Assembly: GCF_000721495.1 (NCBI RefSeq)
Contig: NZ_JOHY01000005.1
Location: 1 to 64,000, forward strand
Direction: 5' to 3'
Length of the DNA stretch: 64,000 nucleotides
From: Streptomyces sp. NRRL F-5123
GTDB lineage: Bacteria > Actinomycetota > Actinomycetes > Streptomycetales > Streptomycetaceae
The position numbers and the translations under genes are program-made. Of this stretch, positions 42,173 to 52,654 are shown one piece after another. Position 1 is the stretch's first letter, and every line of letters starts with the position of its first letter. The notes beneath the pieces are model-generated. The model had not been told where the DNA came from, ran no database searches, and saw only the letters and a list, made by a program, of their open reading frames with translations.

Positions 42173-42672
42173 AGCTCTTGGATTCCCTTCGCTCCGCCCG
42201 TCCTGCGGGTCGTCTTCTTCTTCGTCTTCAGGCTCGGGTCGTCCTTCGTGAACTTGTCACACTTACACGACAGGATGTGGCACTTGCCGCGGGACGACCC
42301 GTCGATTGCGTGGTTGTTCGGGCTGTGCCCGCACTCGGGGTTCCAGCAGTAGCCGGGCCAGCCCTCCGCCTTGCCATCGGCGTTGGCCAGGATGATCCCC
42401 GACGAGGTGAGCGGCACGACCCGGCCGGTCCCTCCGATGTGCACCTTCTTGGCAAAGGCTTCCGCCTCGGCCGCGGCTCCGAAGGGGCCGATGTTCAGGC
42501 CCTTCGTGCCATCAGCCCAGGTGTGGACCAGGACGACGAGGTCGCGCATCTGGAGCATGTCGCCGATCTCCTTGATCAGCGCCTTCGCCATCTGCTCGGG
42601 ACCCTCGAAGGTCTCGTCATCCATGATGTCGACGACCCTCTTGATCTCGTGCGTCCTAGGGGTGATCCTCAC
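42169..42672 (-). CDS. Prophage protein with C-terminal zinc cluster
   Basis: The 167-residue protein begins at GTG 42672, which overlaps the upstream stop codon as GTGA. Residues about 40-110 look like a mixed alpha/beta domain; near 118-150 a cysteine/histidine cluster (CWNPECGHSPNNH, CHILSCKCDKF) should bind zinc, followed by a Lys/Thr-rich tail. Function unknown; nucleic-acid binding is possible. Confidence 0.65.
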   Translation of the reverse strand: MRITPRTHEIKRVVDIMDDETFEGPEQMAKALIKEIGDMLQMRDLVVLVHTWADGTKGLNIGPFGAAAEAEAFAKKVHIGGTGRVVPLTSSGIILANADGKAEGWPGYCWNPECGHSPNNHAIDGSSRGKCHILSCKCDKFTKDDPSLKTKKKTTRRTGGAKGIQEL

Positions 42673-42872
42673 GGACGCTCGCCCTCGGGAACGTCCTCGA
42701 CGTCGACCACCTCGCACCAGGACTCGACGTACTCGGCGACTTCCTGCTCGACCAGCTCGCTGGCCTCCGCCTCGTCCTTGCCCTCCGGGTCGAAGTCGTC
42801 GTCGACCTCGAAGTAGGCGGTCCTCTCGGTGTTGATGTAGGGGCCGCTCACGCTGACCTTCAGGTACTTCAT
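42669..42872 (-). CDS. Small acidic prophage protein
   Basis: The 67-residue protein begins MKYLKVSVSGPYINTERTAY and then becomes very acidic (EGKDEAEASELVEQEVAEY). It overlaps the upstream gene by ATGA. Acidic early phage proteins often mimic DNA or inhibit host factors, but nothing specific is visible. Confidence 0.62.
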   Translation of the reverse strand: MKYLKVSVSGPYINTERTAYFEVDDDFDPEGKDEAEASELVEQEVAEYVESWCEVVDVEDVPEGERP

Positions 42873-43081
42873 CAGCCGACCACCAGGTCCGCGGCGCGGG
42901 CCGAGCGAGCGATGCGGATCTGCTCGCGGGCGTGCTCGATGTCGTTACGGAAGTGGTCGACGATCTCCTGCTTCGCCTCGGTGAGCGTCAGCGGGGTCGC
43001 ATACTCGGAGGCGAACTTGATGGGGAGGATCTTGGGAAACGCTGCGTCGCTCCAGTCGACGAAGAACTTCTCGCGGGCCAC
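42872..43081 (-). CDS. Small prophage protein
   Basis: The 69-residue protein starts at GTG 43081 after GAGGAG (AREKFFVDWSDAAFPKI...) and ends in a helical region IVDHFRNDIEHAREQIRIA. ATG 43108 in the same frame is rejected because it falls inside the ribozyme core and lacks a ribosome binding site. It is the first gene after ribozyme A. Confidence 0.62.
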   Translation of the reverse strand: MAREKFFVDWSDAAFPKILPIKFASEYATPLTLTEAKQEIVDHFRNDIEHAREQIRIARSARAADLVVG

Positions 43082-43103
43082 TGTGTGCTCCTCTCGTCCG
43101 GCT

Positions 43104-43159
43104 GCCATCGTCAGGAGGTGGGCGCCACCCCACCCCGACCCCCTTACGGGGGTTTCGGC
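43104..43159 (-). ncRNA. Hammerhead ribozyme A (type II)
   Basis: On the minus strand the order is GCC, GAAA, stem III CCCCC/GGGGG with loop GUAA, UC, an 8 bp stem I with loop GUGGCG, CUGACGA, then U and GGC. Predicted cleavage is between 43137 and 43136. One U is inserted between the core and stem II, so this copy is slightly degenerate. Confidence 0.75.
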
Positions 43160-43161
43160 GA

Positions 43162-43171
43162 CACTTACACA
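43162..43171 (-). promoter_or_regulatory. Dispersed phage element (stoperator-like)
   Basis: TGTGTAAGTG followed by TCGC, joined directly to the 5' side of ribozyme A and just after the upstream stop codon. Confidence 0.6.
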
Positions 43172-43172
43172 T

Positions 43173-43583
43173 TCACTCCGCGAGCGGCTTCACGAAGCGG
43201 GGGTCGACGTACTGGATGCCCCCCTGCGCCTCGACCTTGACGTCACCCTCCCCGTCGCGTGGACCGACCAGCGTGCCCTTCACCTCGCCCGTGAAGAGCA
43301 CGGCACCACCGGAGGCGGTCTCGGCCTCCGCGCTCACGATCACACGGTCTCCGAGCTTCAGCCGGGCGCCGAGCGCTGCCTCCAGCTCGCTCACCAGGCT
43401 CCCGAGGTCGCCGTGCGAGTCCTCCCACTCGTCGATGCGGGCCTCGTCGTACGCCTCTTGCGACACGCCCTCCTTCAGGTCGCCGCCGTCGTTCAGGAAG
43501 TCGCAGATGCGCTCCTCGCGCTTGTCGTACGCCTTGCGGTACCGGGCGATGATCTCCAGGGCGGTCTCGGGCTTCGTGTTCAC
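43173..43583 (-). CDS. Prophage protein of unknown function
   Basis: The 136-residue acidic protein has a helical N-terminus (ALEIIARYRKAYDKREERI) and a beta-rich C-terminus (LGDRVIVSAEAE ... LFTGEVKGTLVGPRD). GTG 43583 overlaps the upstream stop codon. No family recognised. Confidence 0.62.
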   Translation of the reverse strand: MNTKPETALEIIARYRKAYDKREERICDFLNDGGDLKEGVSQEAYDEARIDEWEDSHGDLGSLVSELEAALGARLKLGDRVIVSAEAETASGGAVLFTGEVKGTLVGPRDGEGDVKVEAQGGIQYVDPRFVKPLAE

Positions 43584-43804
43584 TGTTCGGTCCCCTCTCC
43601 GTTGATGACCCGCACTCCGTAGCGACGGGTGTTGACGTAGGTGTAGACGTTCCATGTCGTGCCGACCGGCTTGTCCAAGTCGACCCAGTCCCCCAGGAGC
43701 TTGATCACCCAGCTCCCGCGCTTGTCCAGGATCTCGACCGCCGTTCCGTCCGGCAGTTCGTCGAGCTCTCGGATCGTCGTGATGATGTTGTCCAACTTAC
43801 ACAC
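43580..43804 (-). CDS. Small prophage protein
   Basis: The frame encodes about 74 residues with DNIITTIRELDELPDGTAVE and TWNVYTYVNTRRYGVRV, a compact beta-rich fold. Starts at GTG 43804 and GTG 43822 both overlap the end of the dNMP kinase gene; a TGTGTAAGT element overlaps the start. Function unknown. Confidence 0.55.
   Translation of the reverse strand: MCKLDNIITTIRELDELPDGTAVEILDKRGSWVIKLLGDWVDLDKPVGTTWNVYTYVNTRRYGVRVINGEGTEQ
43794..43803 (-). promoter_or_regulatory. Dispersed phage element (stoperator-like)
   Basis: TGTGTAAGTT, one mismatch to the consensus, oriented with leftward transcription at the dNMP kinase stop codon. Confidence 0.5.
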
Positions 43805-44393
43805 TGGGGCCTGCGTGTGCAAGTGGCGCGATCAGGTTGGCGACGCCGGCCAGCCGCTTGTGCAGGTCGGCTATCGAGCCGTCGTTCACCAGGATGTGAT
43901 CGAAGTCGTAGTCGTCGAGTGCGACCTCCGACCCGTACACCCGGCCGTACTTGTCCTTGGCCGGGCCGATGCCGGGCCGGGTCACCCGGATCACGAGGCC
44001 GCCGCGGTCGCGCACCGCTCCGGCCTCGTTCGGAAAGCGCACGTCGGTCACCACCAGGGCCGACGTGTCGTCGTGCTGGCGGAACAGGGCGTCCACCCAG
44101 ACGCTCTCGCCGAACAGCCTTCGGCCGGCGTCCGTGCCGACACGATGCAGCAGGGCCCGCACCTCGGGGTAGTGGTCCTTGGCGTACTCCCAGCCGACAT
44201 CCCGTATCAGGACGCTCAGCCGGATGTTCCCCGTACCGTACGGACCCGGGATCACGGGGTCGACGGCGAGCAGAACCTCGCGCAGCTTGTCGGCGAAGGC
44301 CGCCGGCCTCCAACCACGGGTGATGAGGACGTTCGCCGATTCGTTCTTGCCGGAGCGGGCGTATCCGCTCAGGCCGATGATCAGGTCACTCAT
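43797..44393 (-). CDS. Deoxynucleoside monophosphate kinase
   Basis: The 198-residue protein has a P-loop (IIGLSGYARSGKNESAN, residues 5-21), the acceptor helix with FADKLREVLLAVDP, the HRVGTDAGRRLFGE segment and VVTDVRFPNEA, matching phage dNMP kinases of the T4 gp1 type. It phosphorylates dNMPs during phage DNA replication. It overlaps the upstream gene. Confidence 0.9.
   Translation of the reverse strand: MSDLIIGLSGYARSGKNESANVLITRGWRPAAFADKLREVLLAVDPVIPGPYGTGNIRLSVLIRDVGWEYAKDHYPEVRALLHRVGTDAGRRLFGESVWVDALFRQHDDTSALVVTDVRFPNEAGAVRDRGGLVIRVTRPGIGPAKDKYGRVYGSEVALDDYDFDHILVNDGSIADLHKRLAGVANLIAPLAHAGPSV
43816..43825 (+). promoter_or_regulatory. Dispersed element in reverse orientation
   Basis: TGTGCAAGTG followed by GCGC, on the plus strand. 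It is the only copy in the leftward cluster oriented against transcription and lies inside the kinase gene, so it may be chance. Confidence 0.3.
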
Positions 44394-44697
44394 CCTCGAA
44401 CTCCTGGGGGTACTCGGGGAAGGTCAGATCGACTGCGTTCTGACGGGCCTCCTCGAAGCCGGCCAGCCACTCCCCCCGAAGGGTGAAGCCTTCCGGCACC
44501 TCCGGCTCCAGGCCGCGCAGCTCCTCGGCCGCGTCGCGGTAGGCCGCGCGTACCAGGTCGTCGAGCTCGTGCTTGGCCTCGTCGTACTCGTCGCCGTACT
44601 TGCCGACGAGCATGTTGGCCATCTGCACCTCGACGGTCGGCGCCCAGCGCGATCCCTGGCCCGGTACGTACTCCCAACCTTCTCGCTCGCGCGCCAT
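44386..44697 (-). CDS. Prophage protein of unknown function
   Basis: The 103-residue acidic protein (WEYVPGQGSRWAPTVEVQMAN ..., with KHELDDLVRAAYRDAAEEL) overlaps both neighbours by a few bases (ATGA at 44697). It is highly helical. No family recognised. Confidence 0.62.
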   Translation of the reverse strand: MAREREGWEYVPGQGSRWAPTVEVQMANMLVGKYGDEYDEAKHELDDLVRAAYRDAAEELRGLEPEVPEGFTLRGEWLAGFEEARQNAVDLTFPEYPQEFEDE

Positions 44698-44942
44698 CAG
44701 GCACCCGCCGCGATCTGCCAGACCTTCGCCATGCCGCCCCGCCCGGACGGCCGGCGGTCGCCTCGCCACTCGACGAGGCCCTTGGCCATGAGGGTGTTGC
44801 GGGCGGCGTTGATGCTCGACAGCAGGATGTGCAGCTTGCTCGACAGCTCGAAGTCGGTCATGCCGTCCGGTGCGTAGAGGATGGCCTCCAGGACCCTGTC
44901 GGCGTGCGTGTCCATCGGTCGGTTGGCGAGGGCTCGGCTCAT
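44697..44942 (-). CDS. Small winged-helix protein
   Basis: The 81-residue protein looks like a winged helix: ADRVLEAILYAPDGMTDFEL, then SSINAARNTLMAKGLVEWRG as the recognition helix and wing. It could be a regulator of the phage early genes. It is the first gene after ribozyme B. Confidence 0.68.
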   Translation of the reverse strand: MSRALANRPMDTHADRVLEAILYAPDGMTDFELSSKLHILLSSINAARNTLMAKGLVEWRGDRRPSGRGGMAKVWQIAAGA

Positions 44943-44969
44943 CGGTCAGGTCTCCTTGGTCTGCGGCTT

Positions 44970-45023
44970 GGCTCGTCAGCGCGTGGGCAGCCATCCCACG
45001 CGGACCCCCGAAGGGGTTTCACC
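44970..45023 (-). ncRNA. Hammerhead ribozyme B (type II)
   Basis: Order on the minus strand: GGU, GAAA, stem III CCCC/GGGG with a UUCG loop, UC, a perfect 8 bp stem I CGCGUGGG/CCCACGCG with loop AUGGCUG, CUGACGA, GCC. Predicted cleavage between 45003 and 45002. It begins 11 nt after a stop codon and ends 27 nt before the next start. Confidence 0.88.
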
Positions 45024-45034
45024 TTGCGGTCAAA

Positions 45035-45769
45035 TCAGCGGGCAAGACTCTTGTGCCGTCCGCCGATCCGGGTCTGCCCGAGGTCCGCCCGGTGTCCGGC
45101 CTCCTTGCCTTCGCCGAAGCCCGAGCCGGTGATCTTGCGGGGCCCCGCCTTGCGCACCTTCGGGTGCAGGCGCTCGTACTCGGCGACCACCATCTGCTTC
45201 CGGTCGGACAGCACCAGCTCGGCACTGCGGCCCGCAGTGGTCGGTGTCGTCTCCTCGGCCGCCAGGTGCTCGGCCTGAACCAAGCGGCTGAAGACGGCGT
45301 TGCGGAAGCCGGCGTGCCACGCCTTGCGGTAGGCGGTGGTGGACTCTCCCCACTGCGGGCGCCCGCGGTTGACGCCGTTGAAAGCCTGGAGGACGAGAGA
45401 GTTGAAGAGCATGTCGATCCGGTCCAGCGTCGACTCGAAGGCGACGATCTTGACCAGCCGGTACCGTCGTCGGGTCGACGAGTCCTGGAGGGCCCAGTAC
45501 ACGGTCTGGCCGCCGAGCGCCTTTGCGATGTGGGTCAGGAGGTCTGCTCGGTCGACGACGTACGTCCCCTTGATCCGATACGAGCGCTCCACGATCTTGT
45601 CGGACTTGGGGTCCGCCTCTGCGAGCATCGCCCGCTCGATCCCGTACTTCGCCATGAGCTCGGCGGCCTTGGCGAAGTAGGCCAGCGCCTCGTCGGGATG
45701 GGCGCCCGGATCCTCCGCCTTCGCCAGGAGGGCGCGGATCTGCTTCAACTTCGGGTTCTCATTGGACAT
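45035..45769 (-). CDS. DUF2786-domain protein
   Basis: The 244-residue protein begins KLKQIRALLAKAEDPGAHPDE and continues with the helical DUF2786 motif EALAYFAKAAELMAKYGIE; the rest (LSDRKQMVVAEYERLHPKV) matches the phage proteins that carry this domain. DUF2786 proteins are common in phages and transposons, with no proven function. ATG 45769 follows GGAGCAGAG. Confidence 0.85.
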   Translation of the reverse strand: MSNENPKLKQIRALLAKAEDPGAHPDEALAYFAKAAELMAKYGIERAMLAEADPKSDKIVERSYRIKGTYVVDRADLLTHIAKALGGQTVYWALQDSSTRRRYRLVKIVAFESTLDRIDMLFNSLVLQAFNGVNRGRPQWGESTTAYRKAWHAGFRNAVFSRLVQAEHLAAEETTPTTAGRSAELVLSDRKQMVVAEYERLHPKVRKAGPRKITGSGFGEGKEAGHRADLGQTRIGGRHKSLAR

Positions 45770-45794
45770 CTCTGCTCCACTTGCGCGATGGGTT

Positions 45795-45848
45795 GGCTCA
45801 TCAGGACCGGAGATCCACTTCGGCCGACCCCCTGCCGGGGGTTTCGCC
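45795..45848 (-). ncRNA. Hammerhead ribozyme C (type II)
   Basis: Order: GGC, GAAA, stem III CCCCC/GGGGG with loop GGCA, UC, stem I of 8 positions with one A-C mismatch and loop UGGAU, CUGAUGA, GCC. Predicted cleavage between 45826 and 45825. It begins directly after the TGA stop codon of the upstream gene. Confidence 0.88.
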
Positions 45849-46088
45849 TCACTTACACACGTGGCCGTTCGACGGAGGCCAGACCTTGAACCAGCCCGTC
45901 GCGATGGCTCGACCGTCGCGGTCGACGAACACGGACCGGCGCCCACCGTTGGGGAGATCTGTGCTCACGCACGCGGCGGTACGGAGCTTGGTCTGCCGAA
46001 TGTGGTTGTCGTCGATGTAGTAGATGCCGAGTCCGATCGGTTGGCCGTCGTCCTTCGAGTTGTGCGTCAACACTCGGGTGAACGCCAT
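45849..46088 (-). CDS. Small prophage protein
   Basis: The 79-residue protein (MAFTRVLTHNSKDDGQPI, then GGRRSVFVDRDGRAIATGWF) is beta-rich and ends CK-stop inside a TGTGTAAGTG element. No family recognised. Confidence 0.6.
   Translation of the reverse strand: MAFTRVLTHNSKDDGQPIGLGIYYIDDNHIRQTKLRTAACVSTDLPNGGRRSVFVDRDGRAIATGWFKVWPPSNGHVCK
45850..45859 (-). promoter_or_regulatory. Dispersed phage element (stoperator-like)
   Basis: TGTGTAAGTG overlapping the stop codon of the upstream gene and adjoining ribozyme C. Confidence 0.6.
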
Positions 46089-46089
46089 G

Positions 46090-46521
46090 TCAGCTCGTCT
46101 CCTTGTGGCCGTCGAAGCAGTAGACGTACGAGGTGTCGCCCACGCTGGCCCAGCAGAGACGGTGGCCCCAGACGGTGCCCCAGTATTCGCGGTGAGCCTT
46201 CTTGTTGGCTGCCGTCCACGCCTTCCGCTTCGCCGGGTCGTTCAGCTTGGGGTCCAGGTAGACGACGTTCCCCGCGCGGTCGACGTAGTACGAGTAGCCG
46301 GCGGTGTCGCCACGCCGACCGGCATCCCAGTAGCAGTTGCGGTCGTCCGAGTCGTCAGTGCACGGCCGGCTCGGGACGTGGAATACGGGGAGGTACACGA
46401 CCTTCGCCGGTACCGCTGGCGGCTTGTGCTTGGTTGTCGGCGAGGCCGAGGCCCGGGAGGTCGAGGCCAGGGCCCCGAGCAGGGCCGCGACCAGGAGACC
46501 GATCAGTAGGTTCTTCTTCAC
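46090..46521 (-). CDS. Secreted or membrane-anchored prophage protein
   Basis: The 143-residue protein starts with a clear signal sequence (KKNLLIGLLVAALLGALAS) and has four cysteines in the mature part (CTDDSDDRNCYW, LCWAS, YCFDG), suggesting two disulfides. It could modify the cell surface or act in superinfection control. The gene is overlapped at its 5' end by the upstream reading frame. Confidence 0.7.
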   Translation of the reverse strand: MKKNLLIGLLVAALLGALASTSRASASPTTKHKPPAVPAKVVYLPVFHVPSRPCTDDSDDRNCYWDAGRRGDTAGYSYYVDRAGNVVYLDPKLNDPAKRKAWTAANKKAHREYWGTVWGHRLCWASVGDTSYVYCFDGHKETS

Positions 46522-46789
46522 GAGGGGTTCCCTTCATGCTGAGTGATCCGGTGCGAGGCGGCGGGGGCGTCCACTTGGCAGGAAGTTGGTATTGGTAGGC
46601 GGTCAGCTCGGGAATCTCGTGAGGCTCGGCGACGCCGTTCGCGACGGCGACGGAGTACACATCGACGAACAGGGCTATCGCCTTCTTCACGATGTCGCTG
46701 TTGGTCAGCCCGGTCGGTTCGAGGATCTGGAGGTGCCGGGCCAGTTCCTCGTCGACTCGCGCAGCAACCTGGCGGGGCGGGGTGCTCAA
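46355..46789 (-). CDS. Ribbon-helix-helix-like protein with long overlapping tail
   Basis: The frame starts at TTG 46789, overlapping the previous stop, and encodes PPRQVAARVDEELARHLQIL and TNSDIVKKAIALFVDVY, a pattern like ribbon-helix-helix DNA-binding proteins. The stop at 46355 makes it overlap the signal-peptide gene by 167 nt; the overlapping part is low-complexity (PREEEPTDRSPGRG), so a premature stop or frameshift in related phages is possible. Confidence 0.55.
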   Translation of the reverse strand: MSTPPRQVAARVDEELARHLQILEPTGLTNSDIVKKAIALFVDVYSVAVANGVAEPHEIPELTAYQYQLPAKWTPPPPRTGSLSMKGTPREEEPTDRSPGRGPARGPGLDLPGLGLADNQAQAASGTGEGRVPPRIPRPEPAVH

Positions 46790-46971
46790 CTCGGACCCCC
46801 CGTCAGACGCTGGATCTCCTCGCGGAGCATGTCCTTCTCGCGCGCTTCGCTCATGAGCAGATCGCGCAGGTCGGCGAGCTTGAACTGCGCCCACGCGGCG
46901 AGCTTCGCCTCGCGCTCGTTCTCAAAGAGCTTGGGGTACGTGCGCTTCAGTTCTTCCCAGCGCTGATTCAT
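46786..46971 (-). CDS. Small helical prophage protein
   Basis: The 61-residue protein (NQRWEELKRTYPKLFENERE ... LLMSEAREKDMLREEIQRL) is predicted all-helical and possibly a coiled coil. It overlaps the upstream gene by ATGA. Confidence 0.6.
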   Translation of the reverse strand: MNQRWEELKRTYPKLFENEREAKLAAWAQFKLADLRDLLMSEAREKDMLREEIQRLTGGPS

Positions 46972-47189
46972 GCCGCGGCCTCCGCCAGCTCCAACTCGGC
47001 GAACTCCGTCACGCGCCCGTCCTGGGTCAGGTAGCCCGCGTGCATCAGGTCGACCGCGGCCCGGACGTACGAGCCCTGGAGGTTCGCGATCATCCCGCTC
47101 CGGACCAGGAGAGCGAACAGGTCCAGCGTCTCCCTGGCGTCGAGCTCACCCGCCTCGAAGGCCATGATGTCGATGGCGATGTCCTTCAT
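46968..47189 (-). CDS. Conserved actinophage protein
   Basis: The 73-residue protein (KDIAIDIMAFEAGELDARET, then LQGSYVRAAVDLMHAGYLTQ) matches a short family I recall from many actinophages, with no known function. ATG 47189 fits the family start; ATG 47198 is possible. Confidence 0.68.
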   Translation of the reverse strand: MKDIAIDIMAFEAGELDARETLDLFALLVRSGMIANLQGSYVRAAVDLMHAGYLTQDGRVTEFAELELAEAAA

Positions 47190-47207
47190 GCGTCCCATGT
47201 CTTGTCC

Positions 47208-47217
47208 CACTTACACA
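47208..47217 (-). promoter_or_regulatory. Dispersed phage element (stoperator-like)
   Basis: TGTGTAAGTG followed by GGAC. Here the element lies downstream of its ribozyme (D), between it and the next start. Confidence 0.55.
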
Positions 47218-47224
47218 CTCGGTT

Positions 47225-47278
47225 GGCTCATCAGGACCGGAGATCCACTCCGGCCGACCCCCTGCCGGGGGTTTCGCC
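47225..47278 (-). ncRNA. Hammerhead ribozyme D (type II)
   Basis: Order: GGC, GAAA, stem III CCCCC/GGGGG with loop GGCA, UC, perfect 8 bp stem I GGCCGGAG/CUCCGGUC (one G-U) with loop UGGAU, CUGAUGA, GCC. Predicted cleavage between 47256 and 47255. It differs from C by a change that turns C's A-C mismatch into a G-C pair. Confidence 0.9.
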
Positions 47279-47285
47279 TTGGGTG

Positions 47286-47468
47286 CTACTCCTCGCGGAC
47301 GCTGACCGCGTAGGCCCGCTCCTCCCCCATCGGGTCGCGCGTCACCACGCGGATCTCCACGGGCTCGCCGGAAGTCGGAGGGATCAGTTCAGCCGAGATG
47401 ATCGCGGCCGGACGGGCAAGGCCCGCGAGGAAGGAGTAGAGGTGGTATCGAACTTCGAGGGCGTTCAC
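47286..47468 (-). CDS. Small prophage protein
   Basis: The 60-residue protein starts at GTG 47468 after CGGAGGT (NALEVRYHLYSFLAGLARPA ... EIRVVTRDPMGEERAYAVSV). It is beta-rich; no family recognised. Confidence 0.6.
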   Translation of the reverse strand: MNALEVRYHLYSFLAGLARPAAIISAELIPPTSGEPVEIRVVTRDPMGEERAYAVSVREE

Positions 47469-47508
47469 CGCGACCTCCGTTTCGTTGGTTACACTAACAC
47501 GATTGCGA

Positions 47509-47518
47509 CACTTACACA
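47509..47518 (-). promoter_or_regulatory. Dispersed phage element (stoperator-like)
   Basis: TGTGTAAGTG followed by TCGC, overlapping the stop codon of the 47512-47682 gene. This 43 bp gap is the only one over 40 bp in the leftward cluster that has the element but no ribozyme. Confidence 0.6.
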
Positions 47519-47682
47519 TCTCTGTCGAGGATTGCGTGCCATGCGTACTGGGCGGCGCAGTAGTACAGGGACTCAGACCCTTCTCCGCGGCCGGCCGCAA
47601 CCCAGCTACGTTCGGCCGCGTCCACCTCGTACAGTGCAGCGGTTGCCTCGTCGTCGGGCCCCGCCATCGGACGGCGGATCAC
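47512..47682 (-). CDS. Small prophage protein
   Basis: The 56-residue protein begins at GTG 47682, overlapping the upstream stop as GTGA (IRRPMAGPDDEATAALYEVD ... YCAAQYAWHAILDRD). ATG 47667 is an alternative. No family recognised. Confidence 0.55.
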   Translation of the reverse strand: MIRRPMAGPDDEATAALYEVDAAERSWVAAGRGEGSESLYYCAAQYAWHAILDRDV

Positions 47683-48092
47683 GAGTACACCAGGTCCCCG
47701 AAGAGTGCCACCTGCACGATCGCGTCGGCCGCGTCCGCGTCGATCATTCCGGTCTCGATGCCTTCCTCGTCCTTGTCGAGCCACGACTGCACGATGTACC
47801 CGTGGATTTCGCTGTTGACGTACCCCTGGTCCAGGTCGAGGAGCTTGGCGTATGCCTCGCGAACGTCGTCGGCGTTGAGGTAGTGGACGCCGTCGACCTC
47901 GCGCTTACCCCCGAAGTTCCGGTCGTCGATGCCCTCGACGATCGTCCAGGTCTTCCCCTCGGGCAGCGCGTCGAACTCGGCCTGCGTCGGCCGCATCGCC
48001 CAGTACGTGATCCCGCCCTCCGCGGCGGTGTCGATGATGTCCTGGGCGATCGAGTCGGTGAGGCACTTCTTGATCTGAGCGGCGGTAGGCAC
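47679..48092 (-). CDS. Prophage protein of unknown function
   Basis: The 137-residue acidic protein (PTAAQIKKCLTDSIAQDIID ... HYLNADDVREAYAKLLDLDQ) is mostly helical. It belongs to the coupled run 47512-48528. No family recognised. Confidence 0.62.
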   Translation of the reverse strand: MPTAAQIKKCLTDSIAQDIIDTAAEGGITYWAMRPTQAEFDALPEGKTWTIVEGIDDRNFGGKREVDGVHYLNADDVREAYAKLLDLDQGYVNSEIHGYIVQSWLDKDEEGIETGMIDADAADAIVQVALFGDLVYS

Positions 48093-48103
48093 TGTTGATC
48101 TCC

Positions 48104-48406
48104 TCAGTCCTCGGTCATGATGACGGCCCGGTGCGTCCGGGTCGATCGGATGAACTCCGGGAAGGTCCGCACGATCGCGGGCGCAGAGAGCTGGTCGTGA
48201 ACCAGCCGGACGAGGATCAACTCACCGGTCGGGCAGCACCCGTCGATGCAGTTGTCCCAGTAGGCGATCAGTCGCTTGTCCTCGATCCACATGTCGTTGA
48301 CCGCGGTCTCGAACTCCTCCTGTCGCGCGTCCTCGTCGGGATTGACGAGGATCGCGCGCAGCTTCTCGGCCCAGCGGTTGAACCGCTCGTCGATCGACTC
48401 GGACAT
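48104..48406 (-). CDS. Prophage protein of unknown function
   Basis: The 100-residue protein (ERFNRWAEKLRAILVNPDED, NCIDGCCPTGELILVRLVHD) overlaps the upstream small gene by one base (TGATG). No family recognised. Confidence 0.62.
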   Translation of the reverse strand: MSESIDERFNRWAEKLRAILVNPDEDARQEEFETAVNDMWIEDKRLIAYWDNCIDGCCPTGELILVRLVHDQLSAPAIVRTFPEFIRSTRTHRAVIMTED

Positions 48407-48528
48407 CAGACGACGGCCGAGCCGTCGTACTTGTTACGGCGCACCTCGCGCCGCTCCAGGGTGGTGGCCCTGTCCTTGCGCTTCGAGTCGCGGACGGTGC
48501 GGTCGTGGTCGCGGAACTTGGGGGTCAT
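48406..48528 (-). CDS. Small basic prophage protein (40 aa)
   Basis: A 40-residue, very basic peptide (TPKFRDHDRTVRDSKRKDRA, then LERREVRRNKYDG) starts at ATG 48528 right after ribozyme E and overlaps the next gene by one base. Coupling and spacing support it as a gene. Confidence 0.6.
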   Translation of the reverse strand: MTPKFRDHDRTVRDSKRKDRATTLERREVRRNKYDGSAVV

Positions 48529-48554
48529 CTGCTGTGCTCCTTGCTACGTGGCCT

Positions 48555-48610
48555 GGCTCGTCAGGACGTGGGCTGCCATCCCACGCCGACCCCCCGCAGG
48601 GGGTTTCGCC
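48555..48610 (-). ncRNA. Hammerhead ribozyme E (type II)
   Basis: Order: GGC, GAAA, stem III CCCCC/GGGGG with loop UGCG, UC, 8 bp stem I GGCGUGGG/CCCACGUC with loop AUGGCAG, CUGACGA, GCC. Predicted cleavage between 48588 and 48587. It begins directly after the TAA of the upstream gene. Confidence 0.9.
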
Positions 48611-48862
48611 TTAGCCGAACCGGAAGGTCAGACCCAGCAGCTCGGGGACGCTGGACTCGACGATCTCGACGTCGTACCAGGCATTCCCGCGGGTCCGGCC
48701 CGCGCCGGTCTCCGGGAAGATGTGGTCGTCTGCCCAGTCGCTCCGCTCGTCGGTGTCCTCCGCGGGAAGCGGGAGGGGAACGGTGACGACCGCCTCGGTC
48801 TTGATCTCTGCCCCGCCCTCGTAGGTGTTGGTGATGGCGAGCTTCACCGTCGCCTCGCTCAC
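48611..48862 (-). CDS. Small prophage protein
   Basis: The 83-residue protein starts at GTG 48862 overlapping the upstream stop (EATVKLAITNTYEGGAEIKT ... ELLGLTFRFG). It is beta-rich. No family recognised. Confidence 0.6.
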   Translation of the reverse strand: MSEATVKLAITNTYEGGAEIKTEAVVTVPLPLPAEDTDERSDWADDHIFPETGAGRTRGNAWYDVEIVESSVPELLGLTFRFG

Positions 48863-49068
48863 AGCCCCATCTCCTCGACCAGCTCGTCGACCGTGGGAGT
48901 CGGCTGCAACTCCCAGGGCAGTGCCAGGAGCAGGCCCTCGACCTGGTCCGCCAGCTCGCACAGGGTCAGCCACTCCGGGGTGCCCGGGTCCTGCTCGGTG
49001 CGCCACTCCTGCACCTCCTTGACGAGGGCCTGGAGCTTCGTCGTGCGCTCTCGGATCTCTGCGCTCAC
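48859..49068 (-). CDS. Small helical prophage protein
   Basis: The 69-residue protein (EIRERTTKLQALVKEVQEWR ... DQVEGLLLALPWEL) looks like a helical hairpin. GTG 49068 overlaps the upstream stop as GTGA. Confidence 0.6.
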   Translation of the reverse strand: MSAEIRERTTKLQALVKEVQEWRTEQDPGTPEWLTLCELADQVEGLLLALPWELQPTPTVDELVEEMGL

Positions 49069-49412
49069 AGGGCCAGCTCCGCGACGTACTCGGCGATCTC
49101 GTCGTCGGTCATCACGCGGCCCTCGCCTTCCGGGTCGTCCTCGTCGTAGACGTGGTGCATGTCGTCGACTTCGTCGTCGGTGGCGTGACCGCACAGCCAG
49201 TCGATCGCCACCCCCTCGTTACCGGAGACGGCCAGGACCCGCGCGATGGCGTCAGCCTCGGAGCAGGTGAAGTGACCACCCGCCTCGGCCGTACCGAGCC
49301 GCGTGAATACCGCTGCCAAGTCGTCAACCGCGTCAATCAGTCGCTCGGGGGCCCGGTGGTTCACGGTCACCTCTACGACGGTCGGACGGAACAGTCTGCG
49401 GAACAGCTTCAT
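49065..49412 (-). CDS. Acidic prophage protein
   Basis: The 115-residue protein has a basic N-terminus (KLFRRLFRPTVVEVTVNHRA) and an acidic rest with HFTCSEADAIARVLAVSGNE and DDDEIAEYVAEL-like end. First gene after ribozyme F. No family recognised. Confidence 0.6.
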   Translation of the reverse strand: MKLFRRLFRPTVVEVTVNHRAPERLIDAVDDLAAVFTRLGTAEAGGHFTCSEADAIARVLAVSGNEGVAIDWLCGHATDDEVDDMHHVYDEDDPEGEGRVMTDDEIAEYVAELAL

Positions 49413-49437
49413 TCGTCACGCCTTCACGTTCTGGCCT

Positions 49438-49491
49438 GCCTCATCGGGCCGTGGTCTGCCATCCCACGACGACCCCCGAAGGGGTTTCGGC
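49438..49491 (-). ncRNA. Hammerhead ribozyme F (type II, altered core)
   Basis: Order: GCC, GAAA, stem III CCCC/GGGG with loop UUCG, UC, 7 bp stem I GUCGUGG/CCACGGC with one G-A mismatch at its end, CCGAUGA, GGC. Stem II is inverted relative to the other copies but still pairs. The conserved U4 of CUGAUGA is C here, which should impair cleavage. Predicted site between 49471 and 49470. Confidence 0.78.
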
Positions 49492-49498
49492 GTTGCGA

Positions 49499-49508
49499 CA
49501 CTTACACA
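49499..49508 (-). promoter_or_regulatory. Dispersed phage element (stoperator-like)
   Basis: TGTGTAAGTG followed by TCGC, between the upstream stop codon and ribozyme F. Confidence 0.6.
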
Positions 49509-49509
49509 G

Positions 49510-50127
49510 CTAGACCGCCTTGACGAACTCGAAGCCCCTCGTCGAGGTGCCGATCAGCCGATCTCTCCACACCACCCAGGTAACGGCCTGAACCGTCGAG
49601 GGGAGCTCGCGCAGCCGCTGGGCGGCCTCGCGGTAGCAGCGCGCGATCAGGGCGTACCGGCCCTTCGCACCCAGCCCCCGCTCCCGCGCCCCGTACTCCT
49701 CGCCGACCGCGATGTCGTGTGCGTGCCGGTCGACGCAGACCGCCTCCGCATCCTCCGGGTCGAGTATGCAGCGGTAGAAGTGGCCGGTCTTGCGGTCCAT
49801 CGGGAGCACTTCGATGGGGTCGGCCCCCGCCAGGATCTTGGCGGCCTTGGCCAGGGCGTCGCCGAGGTGCCCCGAAGGCTCCCCCGTCTCGTACGCCGCG
49901 GTGGCCAGCTCGACGTTCAGGGGCCAGGAGGTCTGCGGGGACAGCGCGGCCAGGAGGCCAGCCCCCTTACGCGCGTCACCGTCCGTCATCATGGTCGCCA
50001 GGTCGTGGGCGTTGCGATACCAGAAGCGCCCCTGCGTCTCTTGCTCCTCGGTGGCCGCCCACCACGTGTTGATGACGTTTTGGACAAACCCTTCACGCGT
50101 CGCCCCGTCAGCCCTGATGTCGATCAT
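49510..50127 (-). CDS. Conserved phage protein (DUF7178-like)
   Basis: The 205-residue protein (FVQNVINTWWAATEEQETQG, GLLAALSPQTSWPLNVELAT, PMDRKTGHFYRCILDPEDAE) matches a family of actinophage proteins I recognise by pattern. The helix-hairpin-like GLLAALSPQ region and VDRHAHDIAV resemble DNA glycosylase-like folds, but this is only a suggestion. Confidence 0.75.
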   Translation of the reverse strand: MIDIRADGATREGFVQNVINTWWAATEEQETQGRFWYRNAHDLATMMTDGDARKGAGLLAALSPQTSWPLNVELATAAYETGEPSGHLGDALAKAAKILAGADPIEVLPMDRKTGHFYRCILDPEDAEAVCVDRHAHDIAVGEEYGARERGLGAKGRYALIARCYREAAQRLRELPSTVQAVTWVVWRDRLIGTSTRGFEFVKAV

Positions 50128-50152
50128 GAAACCTTCCTTCCCCTCCCGCGGC

Positions 50153-50221
50153 TGCTCATCAGGAGGCAGGCACCGCCCTGCCCCGACCAGGACGACCGAG
50201 AGCGGCCGGCCTGGTTTCGCA
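50153..50221 (-). ncRNA. Hammerhead ribozyme G (type II, extended stem III)
   Basis: Order: UGC, GAAA, stem III CCAGG/CCUGG closed by an 18-nt inner segment, UC, 8 bp stem I GGGGCAGG/CCUGCCUC with loop GCGGUG, CUGAUGA, GCA. Stem II UGC/GCA and stem III differ in sequence from all other copies yet pair. Predicted cleavage between 50185 and 50184. Confidence 0.88.
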
Positions 50222-50229
50222 ATGAGGTG

Positions 50230-50337
50230 TTACGTGACGCTGATCAATCGGGGCTCCCTGTGAAAGCGGTACTCGGCGTCTGTCCCCTCGCGAGGACGTC
50301 GAGCGTCGAGTAATGCCTGGTTCCGGGTGATCTTCAT
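50230..50337 (-). CDS. Small basic prophage protein (35 aa) between two ribozymes
   Basis: ATG 50337 follows GAGAGGG and opens a 35-residue frame (KITRNQALLDARRPREGTDA ... RLISVT). It lies alone between ribozymes H and G, which would release it as a one-gene RNA. Function unknown. Confidence 0.6.
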   Translation of the reverse strand: MKITRNQALLDARRPREGTDAEYRFHREPRLISVT

Positions 50338-50375
50338 GTGACCCTCTCGGACTTGGTGAAATGTGCTACGCGGTT

Positions 50376-50429
50376 GGCTCATCAGGGCCCGGGAACCACC
50401 CGGACCGACCGGCTTTCGCCGGTTTCGCC
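50376..50429 (-). ncRNA. Hammerhead ribozyme H (type II)
   Basis: Order: GGC, GAAA, stem III CCGGC/GCCGG with a GAAA tetraloop, UC, 8 bp stem I GGUCCGGG/CCCGGGCC with loop UGGUU, CUGAUGA, GCC. Stem III is rebuilt relative to CCCCC/GGGGG copies. Predicted cleavage between 50407 and 50406. Confidence 0.92.
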
Positions 50430-50435
50430 TTGCGA

Positions 50436-50445
50436 CACTTACACA
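50436..50445 (-). promoter_or_regulatory. Dispersed phage element (stoperator-like)
   Basis: TGTGTAAGTG followed by TCGC, joined to the 5' side of ribozyme H; UGUGU of this element can pair with GCACA at 50366-50362. Confidence 0.6.
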
Positions 50446-50446
50446 A

Positions 50447-50839
50447 CTACAGCTTCATGAACACTACGTCGGGCGCGCCCAGCGTCCAGTTCGGGACGCG
50501 CTCGGTCTCGACGAAACCGAATCGCCGGTAGTAGTCCGGCAGGAACCCGTCGAAGCAGTCGAGTTTCGAGGCCCCGTAGTGCAGGATCGCGTCCCACACC
50601 ATCCCCTCCCCGCGTCCCTTGACCAGGCTGAACAGCCCGATCAGGATCCCGTCGTTCGCCACCCCGAAGCCCGACGCGAAGTCGTCGCTCAGGTAGTAGC
50701 GGGCGTCGCGAGGCATCTCCTCCGGCTTGCTCGTCGCCTCCGCGATCCTCGGGGTGGTCAGCCTCGCGAAGTCCAGAGCCGCGGTGTACTCCTCCCACGA
50801 CGCGGGGTGCACGATGCCCGTCACGATTGCAGTGGTCAC
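50447..50839 (-). CDS. GNAT-like acetyltransferase
   Basis: The 130-residue protein shows a GNAT-like pattern with GVANDGILIGLFSLVKGRG before an acceptor loop and FLPDYYRRFGFVETERVPNW, the usual Y-x-RxGF end motif. Phage acetyltransferases can modify host targets. The canonical RxxGxG/A CoA loop is weak, so it may be inactive or diverged. Confidence 0.7.
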   Translation of the reverse strand: MTTAIVTGIVHPASWEEYTAALDFARLTTPRIAEATSKPEEMPRDARYYLSDDFASGFGVANDGILIGLFSLVKGRGEGMVWDAILHYGASKLDCFDGFLPDYYRRFGFVETERVPNWTLGAPDVVFMKL

Positions 50840-50868
50840 GCTTTATCTCCTCAGGAGTCGAGCAGGCT

Positions 50869-50924
50869 GGCTCATCAGCGACCGGCAACCCAAGCCGGTC
50901 GGACGCCCCAAAGGGCGTTTCGCC
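50869..50924 (-). ncRNA. Hammerhead ribozyme I (type II)
   Basis: Order: GGC, GAAA, stem III CGCCC/GGGCG with loop UUUG, UC, perfect 8 bp stem I CGACCGGC/GCCGGUCG with loop UUGGGUU, CUGAUGA, GCC. Predicted cleavage between 50902 and 50901. It begins directly after the TAA of the upstream gene. Confidence 0.93.
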
Positions 50925-51062
50925 TTACCGGGGTGTGACTCGCGTCAGTACCTCCGGGTCGTGCTTCGCGTGCCACTCCGTCCAGCACGCCTCCGAGCAG
51001 AAGTCCTCGTGTGCCCGGATCGGGGCGTGGCACCCGTCGTTCTCGCACTCGTCGATCTCCAC
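50925..51062 (-). CDS. Small zinc-finger-like prophage protein (45 aa)
   Basis: GTG 51062 follows GAGGGGTGAGC and encodes EIDECENDGCHAPIRAHEDF then CSEACWTEWHAKHD. Cysteine/histidine spacing fits a treble-clef type zinc finger. Upstream neighbour is 10 bp away. Confidence 0.65.
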   Translation of the reverse strand: MEIDECENDGCHAPIRAHEDFCSEACWTEWHAKHDPEVLTRVTPR

Positions 51063-51072
51063 TGCTCACCCC

Positions 51073-51306
51073 TCAGTTCGTCGCGAAGCCGCGCAGCTCG
51101 GCGAGCACCATCAGGCACTCGGTGACGGTCGTCAGGTCCGAGTAGTCGATGCTCGAACCGTGCTGCTCATCCGAGAATCGCTGGAGCTTGGCCCGGAGCT
51201 CGGCCGGGGAGGCGGGCAGATACTCCGCCATCAGTCGGTCGAAGGACTCCGGACTGGTCTGGAAGCTGCCGTGCGTCGTGACGCGCAGCCGAACGTGACC
51301 GAACAA
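51073..51306 (-). CDS. Small prophage protein
   Basis: The 77-residue protein starts at TTG 51306 after GGGGGATAGGG (FGHVRLRVTTHGSFQTSPES ... VTECLMVLAELRGF). No family recognised. Confidence 0.57.
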   Translation of the reverse strand: MFGHVRLRVTTHGSFQTSPESFDRLMAEYLPASPAELRAKLQRFSDEQHGSSIDYSDLTTVTECLMVLAELRGFATN

Positions 51307-51317
51307 TCCCTATCCCC

Positions 51318-51512
51318 CTACTTCTTGAGCCAGGAGCAGGCGTACGCCGAGCCCTGGTCGCAGTCGTCCTGCTTGCTGGTCGCGAAGCCGTCGTTGTATG
51401 TACTCACCGCGTCGGCGCTCTTGCCCGGCCGAACCTCCGGATGGATGGTGCCGAACACCACACCACCACCCAGGAGGAATCCGACGAGCAGCGCCACCAT
51501 CGAGCGCTTCAT
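51318..51512 (-). CDS. Small membrane or secreted prophage protein
   Basis: The 64-residue protein has a membrane helix or signal anchor (KRSMVALLVGFLLGGGVVFG) and two cysteines near the C-terminus (DDCDQGSAYACSW). It could act at the cell surface. ATG 51512 lies 3 bp from the end of the previous gene. Confidence 0.65.
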   Translation of the reverse strand: MKRSMVALLVGFLLGGGVVFGTIHPEVRPGKSADAVSTYNDGFATSKQDDCDQGSAYACSWLKK

Positions 51513-51515
51513 CGG

Positions 51516-51695
51516 TCAGGCCCCGGCCAGGACGCGGGCCTTGCGGGCGTTGAAGCGCCGCACGTCGGCCTGGTAGGTCTGCTCCTGGAACTCCAGCGCC
51601 AGGGCGACCAGGCTGTTCTTGCGGAGCTCGCCGTTGATCCGCGCCCGAATCCGGCCGTACTGGATGCTCTGCGGGGTCTTGTCCAGCGACACCAT
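51516..51695 (-). CDS. Small prophage protein (59 aa)
   Basis: ATG 51695 follows GAGAGGGA and encodes 59 residues (VSLDKTPQSIQYGRIRARIN ... LALEFQEQTYQADVRRFNA). Basic and helical. First gene after ribozyme J; no family recognised. Confidence 0.6.
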   Translation of the reverse strand: MVSLDKTPQSIQYGRIRARINGELRKNSLVALALEFQEQTYQADVRRFNARKARVLAGA

Positions 51696-51725
51696 GACGT
51701 ACTCCCTCTCGGAGTTGAGCAGGCT

Positions 51726-51779
51726 GGCTCATCAGCGACCAGGAACCACCTGGCCGGACCCCCTCTCGGGAGTTTCGCC
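51726..51779 (-). ncRNA. Hammerhead ribozyme J (type II)
   Basis: Order: GGC, GAAA, stem III CUCCC/GGGGG (one U-G) with loop GAGA, UC, 8 bp stem I CGGCCAGG/CCUGGUCG with loop UGGUU, CUGAUGA, GCC. Predicted cleavage between 51757 and 51756. It is the promoter-proximal copy. Confidence 0.92.
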
Positions 51780-51785
51780 TTGCGA

Positions 51786-51795
51786 CACTTACACA
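51786..51795 (-). promoter_or_regulatory. Dispersed phage element (stoperator-like)
   Basis: TGTGTAAGTG followed by TCGC, between the upstream stop codon and ribozyme J. Confidence 0.6.
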
Positions 51796-51800
51796 TCTGG

Positions 51801-52193
51801 TCAGATCAGACGGAGGCACGTCACCTTCCGGACCTCCAAGGTCAGCCAGCCCCCGGCCTCCTGGTACTGCGGCTCATACGGGGAACTCTGAGCGTCGGCG
51901 AGCAACCACTCGACCGTGAAGGTAGCGACGCCGGTCAGCGCCTGAATCCAAGCCAGGGCCACTTCACTCTCGAAGGGCCAGAGCTCGATGACCGGGTCCG
52001 ACTCGCCCTCGCCGTCGAAGGTCTCGACCACGTATCCGGCCTGGGCGATCGGGGGCTTGGGGTTGATCTCGGTGAGGTACTGCGGGTAGCCGAACCGCCC
52101 GGCGCAGTCGATGCAGAGGTGCTTCCTCACGCCTTCGGTGGTGTCGTAGAAGTGGGTCGCGTTGGCGGCGTGGCCCAGGTAGGTGCAGTTCAT
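51801..52193 (-). CDS. Prophage protein with N-terminal zinc finger
   Basis: The 130-residue protein starts at ATG 52193 after GAGAGGGA. CTYLGHAANATHFYDTTEGV and LCIDCAGRFGYPQ give a Cys/His set for one zinc; the rest (VVETFDGEGESDPVIELWPF) is beta-rich. It is the promoter-proximal gene of the leftward cluster. Confidence 0.65.
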   Translation of the reverse strand: MNCTYLGHAANATHFYDTTEGVRKHLCIDCAGRFGYPQYLTEINPKPPIAQAGYVVETFDGEGESDPVIELWPFESEVALAWIQALTGVATFTVEWLLADAQSSPYEPQYQEAGGWLTLEVRKVTCLRLI

Positions 52194-52216
52194 GTCCGTC
52201 CCTCTCGACGTTGTTA

Positions 52217-52644: not shown

Positions 52645-52654
52645 CACTTGCACA
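52645..52654 (-). promoter_or_regulatory. Dispersed phage element (stoperator-like)
   Basis: TGTGCAAGTG, C variant, inside the non-coding region. Confidence 0.5.

What the first reader, a model, noticed from the sequence alone, without database searches (positions are those of the whole stretch)
43104..51779. Array of ten type II hammerhead ribozymes in the early gene cluster of one prophage
On the leftward (minus) strand, ten elements of 54-69 nt each show the complete order of the hammerhead in its type II permutation: short open stem II, GAAA, a closed stem III, UC cleavage dinucleotide, a closed 7-8 bp stem I, then CUGANGA and the other side of stem II. Coordinates: 43104-43159, 44970-45023, 45795-45848, 47225-47278, 48555-48610, 49438-49491, 50153-50221, 50376-50429, 50869-50924, 51726-51779. 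Established knowledge: hammerheads, including type II forms, have been found by structure searches in bacterial and phage genomes, usually as isolated copies. Ten sense-oriented copies within 9 kb, all in one operon, is to my knowledge undescribed. Inference: the phage uses self-cleavage to split an early polycistronic RNA into separately controlled pieces.
Basis: partly seen in the sequence, partly recalled or inferred. Interest (0 to 1): 0.96.

Follow-up and report, generated by a model that had tools for sequence, protein, structure and literature searches.

The report
Phage operon punctuated by self-cutting RNAs
A Streptomyces virus sleeping in this genome carries ten small RNAs that look self-cutting, one before each of ten early genes, and cousins of the virus put an unrelated tRNA-shaped RNA before largely the same genes, which suggests that both serve to chop one long message into separate gene messages.

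Summary
All ten elements match the Rfam type II hammerhead model on the gene strand; the nine E<=0.001 matches found in the 8.8-Mb genome all lie here. Nine of ten have the intact core. Each fills a gap between genes, the predicted cut 55-69 nt before a start codon.

The novelty claim fails in part: Perreault et al. 2011 (PMC3088659, passages) describe several hammerheads flanking prophage genes and propose mRNA processing. Nor is the array unique: 10 of 14 related phage records carry 9-14 matches, and 25 of 39 IMG/VR terminase relatives 1-17.

Not found in print: four relatives without hammerheads (phiCAM, Sitrop, Zemlya, Lorelei) carry 7-10 copies of a 43-nt tRNA-like RNA that no Rfam family matches at E<=1 (three early regions), covaries, precedes largely the same genes and was never found together with hammerheads.

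Best reading: interchangeable devices that cut an early polycistronic RNA, hammerheads by themselves, tRNA mimics probably by host RNase P. No cleavage was tested.

The parts
51718..51780 (-). type II hammerhead 1 (first in transcription order); predicted cut after C51757; leader 61 nt to start codon 51695
   Evidence: RF02276 42.4 bits; intact core
50861..50925 (-). type II hammerhead 2; predicted cut after C50902; begins at the last base of the upstream TAA stop codon
   Evidence: RF02276 47.8 bits
50368..50430 (-). type II hammerhead 3; predicted cut after C50407
   Evidence: RF02276 47.1 bits
50146..50222 (-). type II hammerhead 4, long stem III; predicted cut after C50185
   Evidence: RF02276 45.8 bits
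49430..49492 (-). hammerhead 5, core CCGAUGA (U4 to C): possibly weak or dead
   Evidence: 33.4 bits, below the gathering score
48547..48611 (-). type II hammerhead 6; predicted cut after C48588; begins at the last base of the upstream TAA stop codon
   Evidence: RF02276 42.5 bits
47217..47279 (-). type II hammerhead 7; predicted cut after C47256
   Evidence: RF02276 45.8 bits
45787..45849 (-). type II hammerhead 8, near copy of number 7 with a stem I mismatch; predicted cut after C45826
   Evidence: RF02276 39.8 bits
44961..45024 (-). type II hammerhead 9; predicted cut after C45003
   Evidence: 35.3 bits, just below the gathering score, E 8e-4; intact core
43096..43160 (-). type II hammerhead 10; predicted cut after C43137
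   Evidence: RF02276 50.6 bits
42169..52193 (-). early gene block: small genes, mostly of unknown function, with a deoxynucleoside monophosphate kinase at 43797-44393, a DUF7178 gene at 49510-50127, a DUF7417 gene at 46968-47198, a DUF2786 gene at 45035-45769 and, at 50447-50839, a homologue of genes annotated acetyltransferase
   Evidence: start codons picked by me from open frames
39385..41346 (-). large serine integrase at the end of the prophage
   Evidence: phrog_95 E 1.6e-84
42261..52880 (-). 11 copies of GTGTAAGT, oriented with transcription; five lie just before hammerheads (51794, 50444, 49507, 45858, 43170). Read as repressor stoperator sites; not compared with the published R4 site
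   Evidence: R4-type stoperators described in PMC10276819 (passages)

Best explanation
The ten elements are type II hammerhead ribozymes that cut the leftward early polycistronic RNA of an R4-like (Arquatrovirinae-type) prophage at ten gene boundaries. Each cut leaves the upstream message ending in the stem III hairpin with GUC and a 2',3'-cyclic phosphate, and the downstream message beginning with 5'-OH directly at the stem I hairpin, 55-69 nt before a start codon. Both new ends are thus capped by hairpins, so each gene or short gene block gets its own message with its own stability and translation. Sister phages achieve the same with a 43-nt tRNA-like element before largely the same genes, probably cut at its 5' end by host RNase P. 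Shown by computation: hammerhead identity, core conservation, positions, recurrence as arrays in related phages, and the tRNA-like replacement with its covariation. Inferred: cleavage in the cell, the end chemistry (established hammerhead chemistry), RNase P as the cutter of the tRNA-like element, and effects on stability and translation.
For: All ten match RF02276. 51 of 52 parsed copies keep CUGANGA while stems diverge with pairing kept. In 10 of 10 copies the predicted cut lies 55-69 nt before a start codon, and the ribozyme begins between 1 nt inside and 20 nt after the upstream stop codon. Arrays of 9-14 matches in 10 of 14 related records (Marav's 14th is weak, 19.7 bits); of 39 terminase relatives 25 have 1-17 matches, 18 of them 8 or more. 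The 4 related records without hammerheads have 7-10 tRNA-like elements; none of 39 has both; 15 records with tRNA-like elements have no hammerhead; 80 loci found by a hammerhead-like pattern (80 of the 120 stretches) have no tRNA-like element. Of 20 gene families shared by the two kinds of phage, the element lies upstream in both kinds for 8 and in neither for 9, against 3 mixed (r 0.754, permutation p 3.5e-4). tRNA-like covariation: 99.5% of 923 cells paired, score 0.631 against 0.140 shuffled, 0 of 500 as high; in 46 copies outside the seed pattern all 14 pairs are standard, among them two pseudoknot pairs that the search model did not contain. Tandem prophage hammerheads were shown to cleave in vitro and one set in E. 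coli (PMC3088659, passages).
Against: No cleavage data for these copies. One of ten has a changed core and one a damaged stem I, and folding energies are unremarkable. In relatives 7 of 42 hammerheads overlap annotated genes (R4 five, Caelum one, VieEnRose one), perhaps through misplaced start codons, which is unproven. Seven of the 25 hammerhead-bearing IMG/VR records have only 1-4 matches, and 3 of 39 relatives have neither element. Some relatives carry other repeated structured elements before genes, so the slots may select for structure in general. The slot agreement could partly reflect that both elements can only sit where genes do not overlap; the phages are related, so rows are not independent. 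Two of the five covariation measures do not exceed shuffles (pairs with a change on both sides 9 against 8.3; further pair types 25 against 23.4). The tRNA-like element lacks a full CCA end (R-C-U), and its cutting is not shown.
Confidence: 0.72

Rival explanations
1. Regulated self-cleavage: each ribozyme is a gene switch whose cutting depends on translation of the upstream gene, a protein or a small molecule; uncut RNA is the working form of some genes.
For: Three ribozymes begin at the last base of the upstream stop codon (50925, 48611, 45849), so a terminating ribosome would cover stem II and GAAA. Aminoglycosides, made by Streptomyces, bind a hammerhead ribozyme (statement with citation in PMC9239200, passage). 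Five of ten follow a stoperator-like site.
Against: No extra domain was seen: the matches here are minimal hammerheads of 63-77 nt, and sister phages replace them by an unrelated RNA.
Confidence: 0.15
2. The slots hold any stable RNA structure that insulates translation or protects mRNA; cutting is incidental.
For: Other relatives carry GC-rich hairpins or a further repeated element before genes (L328, L331, L332).
Against: The catalytic core is kept in 51 of 52 copies, which a mere hairpin would not need; the tRNA-like element keeps elbow residues and linker-to-T-loop pairs beyond a hairpin's needs.
Confidence: 0.09
3. The repeats act in DNA, as recombination borders that help module exchange in the mosaic early region.
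For: Early-gene trees disagree with each other; copies 45787 and 47217 are near-identical.
Against: Conservation follows RNA pairing, and the copies in the window and and 53 records are on one strand, that of the early genes.
Confidence: 0.03
4. Selfish or neutral ribozyme repeats without function for the phage.
For: Copy numbers vary (1-17) and one copy here has a changed core.
Against: Fixed place before start codons, presence in several genera, and replacement by a different RNA before largely the same genes.
Confidence: 0.01

Closest known systems
Clustered prophage hammerheads of Perreault et al. 2011 (PMC3088659; passages read), Rfam RF02276 Hammerhead_II
   Same: Type II hammerheads, several per prophage, flanking small phage genes; proposed processing of long phage RNA; an antirestriction gene (ardA) next to hammerheads there, and here a gene family annotated OCR-like antirestriction in Marav, R4, Zemlya and Lorelei (hypothetical in Caelum and phiCAM, 'DNA methylase' in VieEnRose) next to hammerheads or the tRNA-like element.
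   Different: The tandem sets tested there that the passages describe are small (the A. tumefaciens set is a triple; Figure 3 was not seen). Here 9-14 matches per phage recur in most sampled relatives, at a near-constant distance from start codons in the window, with a non-homologous replacement in sister genera. 'Streptomyces' occurs 0 times in that paper's main text.
tRNA punctuation and RNase P cutting of polycistronic RNA (recalled from general knowledge)
   Same: A tRNA-shaped element between genes is cut to free the flanking messages; the tRNA-like element here has an acceptor stem, T-loop and D-loop-like GG.
   Different: No anticodon arm, 5-bp acceptor stem, R-C-U instead of RCCA, not a functional tRNA; its model R1 matches nothing in 35 host-genus genomes (150 candidates per genome scored, no positive control) and Rfam tRNA does not match the early regions of phiCAM, Zemlya or Lorelei at E<=1.
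Halovirus HF1/HF2 hammerhead upstream of an early helicase gene (in PMC3088659, passage)
   Same: Hammerhead just upstream of a phage early gene; a transcript 5' end mapped within three nucleotides of the cut site.
   Different: Described there as a structural variant 13 nt before one helicase gene, not as an array.
R4-type repressor-stoperator regulation (PMC10276819, passages)
   Same: Repeated sites in intergenic regions; GTGTAAGT here is repeated between genes and oriented with transcription.
   Different: A separate layer acting on transcription, not part of the ribozymes; the published R4 site was not compared.

Membership tests
Hammerhead ribozyme, type II (RF02276) | Covariance model match | tested here: met
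   8 of 10 over the gathering score, the other 2 at 35.3 and 33.4 bits
Hammerhead ribozyme, type II (RF02276) | Core CUGANGA and GAAA with a UH cleavage site | tested here: met
   9 of 10 here, 51 of 52 with relatives; exception 49430-49492 with CCGAUGA (the parser required GAAA and a UH site)
Hammerhead ribozyme, type II (RF02276) | Closed stems I and III, open stem II | tested here: met
   Stem III 4-5 contiguous pairs, stem I 7-8 in 9 of 10 (5 in 45787), stem II about 2-4 pairs read by eye; minimum-energy folds show stems I and III in 9 of 10, the full three-stem form in 2 of 10
Hammerhead ribozyme, type II (RF02276) | Pseudoknot of loop I with the tail 3' of stem II | tested here: inconclusive
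   3 or more complementary bases in 51 of 52, up to 7 in Marav, Caelum and VieEnRose, but no chance control was made and short matches are expected
Hammerhead ribozyme, type II (RF02276) | Self-cleavage | not testable with these tools
   Needs transcription in vitro
tRNA (RF00005), considered for the replacing element | Model match, or found by a tRNA finder | tested here: not met
   No RF00005 match at E<=1 in phiCAM, Zemlya, Lorelei early regions; ARAGORN gives 1 gene in the three, built over one copy's T-arm
tRNA (RF00005), considered for the replacing element | T-arm with TTCGAN loop and D-loop GG | tested here: met
   In 46 copies outside the seed pattern the linker GGCA is kept in 46 of 46, and each of the loop bases TTCGAG in 45 or 46 of 46
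tRNA (RF00005), considered for the replacing element | Anticodon arm | tested here: not met
   Absent from the 66 aligned copies and the 46 further ones
RNase P substrate, considered for the replacing element | Coaxial acceptor/T stem, G1-C72-like pair, RCC at the 3' side | tested here: inconclusive
   11 pairs contiguous on the 3' strand, G-C first pair 46 of 46, R-C-U (A 33 or G 13; C 46; U 36 of 46), A at -1 in 173 of 197 contexts; cleavage not testable

The most novel reading that the evidence does not exclude
Two unrelated RNA-cutting devices are interchangeable parts in one family of phages: self-cleaving hammerheads in some genera and, before largely the same genes, a so far unnamed minimal tRNA mimic cut by host RNase P in others, possibly exchanged more than once. 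If so, the long-open function of prophage hammerheads is mRNA punctuation, and these gaps are a place to look for further RNA-cutting elements (L328, L331 and L332 already show other repeated structures).
Probability: 0.45. Interest if true: 0.9.

Novelty: new variant of a known kind. Interest (0 to 1): 0.8.

Why it matters
The reason why ribozymes gather near phage genes was still called unknown in 2023 (PMC10085705, passage). Here are isolated phages (R4, Caelum, Marav) with 9-14 hammerhead matches each, and sister phages (phiCAM, Zemlya, Lorelei) with a different element before largely the same genes: a natural swap experiment that makes the mRNA-processing idea directly testable. It also yields a covariation-supported RNA element with no Rfam match that looks like a very small natural tRNA mimic used as a processing signal (inference).

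Tried and rejected
Promoter reading of the GTGTAAGT repeat (ribozyme at the 5' end of a fresh transcript): dropped. Only the copy at 52225 showed, by eye, a TTGAC-like -35; copies also lie in the rightward late region, and R4-like phages are reported to have stoperators (PMC10276819, passages; a 2013 paper on R4-like phages is recalled, not read).

Other Rfam classes: in window 38000-64000 the only matches besides RF02276 at E<=5 are three chance-level rows. The early regions of three relatives lacking both elements and of two with one or two hammerheads gave no other ribozyme family at E<=0.5; one tRNA row there (L330) was not pursued.

The first tRNA-like pattern had the wrong spacing; its zero results are void. 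It was corrected. One search replaces for the host genus, but had no positive control genome and scored 150 candidates per genome.

Trees: on the terminase tree the tRNA-like phages need two changes, and supported branches force two, but of seven quick early-gene trees of six to eight phages three need one and four need two, so the number of exchanges is open. The L307 terminase has one in-frame stop and entered the tree with X there.

Rows dropped before counts: Marav's weak match 43242-43288 was left out. For one search I picked 50 low-scoring rows by hand from the 300 of 357 shown; 2 were duplicates and 2 of another length were dropped, leaving 46. One search used 66 of the 122 distinct copies. 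One search counts downstream genes: 76 elements gave 73 element-bearing genes.

A pseudoknot statistic for the hammerheads was not claimed, because the copies share loop motifs.

Literature: (all ten searches); lists were capped (25 of 57, 25 of 199, 20 of 2093). Open-licence papers only; most subscription papers on Streptomyces phages are not covered. PMC8407740 was read in full text except the end of its reference list; PMC3088659, PMC10085705, PMC9239200, PMC11536984 and PMC10276819 in passages only; the rest as listings.

Full report
OBSERVATION. A search of the whole 8.8-Mb assembly reports nine matches at E<=0.001, all in this stretch (150 of 12514 first-look candidates scored). Parsing shows GAAA, a GUC cleavage site, closed stems III and I, and CUGANGA in nine of ten; 49430-49492 has CCGAUGA, and 45787-45849 has a stem I mismatch. 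Folding energies are unremarkable (z -2.5 to 0.0), and only 47217 and 50368 have the full three-stem form as minimum-energy fold.

SURROUNDINGS. The ribozymes lie in a leftward block of small genes between a large serine integrase (39385-41346) and the rightward terminase and capsid genes. The latter are 82-84% identical in DNA, over 35-36% of the 24.7-kb query, to Streptomyces phages such as Marav, Caelum and TinaBelcher, which are filed under Arquatrovirinae; the terminase is 92-94% identical in protein to the nearest phages. Every ribozyme fills a gap between two genes: its 5' end lies between 1 nt inside and 20 nt after the upstream stop codon, and the predicted cut is 55-69 nt before the next start codon, in 10 of 10 (start codons were picked by me from open frames checked, and the small upstream gene at 50925-51062). 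Most genes of the block have no known function. A second repeat, GTGTAAGT, occurs 16 times in the prophage (0.18 expected on both strands together), 11 times on the minus strand and 5 on the plus strand, in the sense of transcription. It fits the repressor-stoperator system reported for R4 and its relatives (PMC10276819, passages), though the published site was not compared.

RELATIVES WITH HAMMERHEADS. Eight of eight phage records fetched first carry 9-14 matches at E<=0.01, all on the minus strand near the right end (Marav's 14th is weak). A second set of ten records added VieEnRose (10) and R4 (9) and eight without any: phiCAM, Sitrop, Zemlya and Lorelei of the same subfamily, and phiC31, Success, Goose and Tallboi outside it. 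So 10 of 14 records of this group (13 filed under Arquatrovirinae, plus Paolo, whose record gives no subfamily) have an array. In 35 genomes of the host genus, six including this one have a match, one of them seven in 9 kb. Of 80 IMG/VR loci kept for a terminase relative (118 found), the 39 on contigs of 40 kb or more were searched: 25 have hammerheads, from 1 to 17; 18 have 8 or more and 7 have 1 to 4. Some of these are the same phages as in GenBank, and one (L248, terminase 100% identical) appears to be this prophage itself.

THE REPLACEMENT. Reading the gaps of three related phages without hammerheads (phiCAM, Zemlya, Lorelei) showed another repeated element. It is 43 nt long: a 5-bp acceptor-like stem, a linker with YGGCA closed by one covarying pair, a 6-bp T-stem with the loop TTCGAGN, and then R-C-U. 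An exact pattern with corrected spacing found it in 77 stretches of IMG/VR DNA and 2 of the genome collection; 33 loci, some of them duplicates of one phage, hold four or more copies. On 66 aligned copies 99.5% of cells pair, the covariation score is 0.631 against 0.140 in shuffles (0 of 500 as high), and sliding the partners destroys it; two of the five measures, which count pairs and pair types, do not exceed shuffles. In 46 copies found by the model and not fixed by the pattern, all 14 pairs are standard in 46 of 46. The model favours pairing in 12 of them, but the two linker-to-T-loop pairs, which make a pseudoknot, were not in the model; one of these varies (AU 35, GC 8, UA 2, CG 1). Position -1 is A in 173 of 197 contexts. 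Rfam has no match at E<=1 to the element in these early regions; the model finds nothing in 35 host-genus genomes (limited as told under Tried and rejected), so it does not simply read ordinary tRNAs.

EXCLUSION AND SLOTS. In 18 phage records the model finds the element in four, the same four related phages that have no hammerhead: phiCAM 10, Sitrop 9, Zemlya 7, Lorelei 7. Fifteen IMG/VR records with the element have no hammerhead match; 80 loci with hammerhead-like pattern matches (80 of 120 stretches) have no such element; of 39 terminase relatives 25 have hammerheads, 11 the tRNA-like element, none both, 3 neither. Comparing genes of the window prophage and seven phages, 76 elements gave 73 element-bearing downstream genes. 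Of 20 gene families present in both kinds of phage, eight have an element upstream in both kinds, nine in neither, one only in hammerhead phages and two only in the others (r 0.754, permutation p 3.5e-4, Fisher p 0.0027). The clearest cases are families F5, F7, F11, F12 and F22; F11 is annotated OCR-like antirestriction in Marav, R4, Zemlya and Lorelei. Limits: related phages are not independent rows, families were made by single linkage, 7 of 42 hammerheads in relatives overlap annotated genes, and both elements need a gap to sit in.

HOW OFTEN EXCHANGED. On the terminase tree the tRNA-like phages form two clades among hammerhead phages, and supported branches force two changes. Seven early-gene trees disagree: three need one change and four need two. 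The early region is mosaic, so I claim at least one exchange.

MECHANISM. The kept core says that cutting is selected; the place says that the cut separates genes; the replacement says that what matters is the cut or the ends it makes. By established hammerhead chemistry the cut leaves a cyclic phosphate after GUC behind stem III and a 5'-OH at stem I. In the tRNA-like phages RNase P would cut before the first G, leaving the structured element at the head of the downstream message; a second predicted hairpin often follows. RNase P is an inference from the tRNA shape; self-cleavage or RNase Z cutting of this element is not excluded. Three relatives show yet other repeated structures before genes: five copies in L328, whose pattern recurs in no other IMG/VR record, and a few GC-rich hairpins in L331 and L332. 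These were not analysed further and warn that the slots may favour structured RNA more generally.

KNOWN OR NEW. Perreault et al. 2011 (PMC3088659, passages) already reported clusters of hammerheads in prophages, the processing idea, and activity in vitro and in E. coli. A later paper (PMC10085705, passages) says the reason for the association of ribozymes with phage-related genes is still unknown. Searches for hammerhead with Streptomyces and prophage, for Arquatrovirinae, for Streptomyces phage with ribozyme, for hammerhead with actino- or mycobacteriophage, for hammerhead with prophage and operon, and for tRNA-like with RNase P or Streptomyces and phage listed no paper that, by title and start of abstract, describes these arrays or the tRNA-like element; only open-licence papers are held and the lists were capped. 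The hammerhead array is therefore a larger, group-wide variant of a known kind; the tRNA-like element and its exchange with hammerheads are, as far as these searches go, new.

Noticed in passing
L160, L161, L162 and 33 loci with four or more copies; e.g. L161:9297-9339 minus: A 43-nt tRNA-like RNA element with no Rfam match, 7-10 copies per phage before early genes, with covarying stems and linker-to-T-loop pairs.
   Followed up: yes
L328:3899-7699 (IMGVR_UViG_2942284546_000003): Five copies of another ~55-nt element with a varying but matching 7-8 bp outer stem and ACCA at its 3' side in 4 of 5, before genes in a relative that lacks both hammerheads and the tRNA-like element.
   Followed up: partly
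L331 and L332, minus strand: A few GC-rich hairpins (GGCCGCCCC...GGGGCGGCC with a CAGGGAGNGGG loop), mostly just before start codons, in phages that have only one or two hammerheads.
   Followed up: partly
window 42261-62447: GTGTAAGT repeated 16 times in the sense of transcription (11 minus, 5 plus); probably repressor stoperator sites.
   Followed up: partly
window 45787-45849 and 47217-47279: Two near-identical hammerheads, so one probably arose by recent copying; the 45787 copy has a stem I mismatch.
   Followed up: partly
IMG/VR record of L288 (G067): A record with 17 type II hammerhead matches at E<=0.001, the largest array seen here.
   Followed up: no
gene family F11 in Marav, Caelum, VieEnRose, R4 (hammerhead upstream) and Zemlya, Lorelei, phiCAM (tRNA-like element upstream): The family, annotated OCR-like antirestriction in Marav, R4, Zemlya and Lorelei, follows one or the other element, as ardA follows hammerheads in Agrobacterium and Legionella (PMC3088659 passage).
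   Followed up: partly
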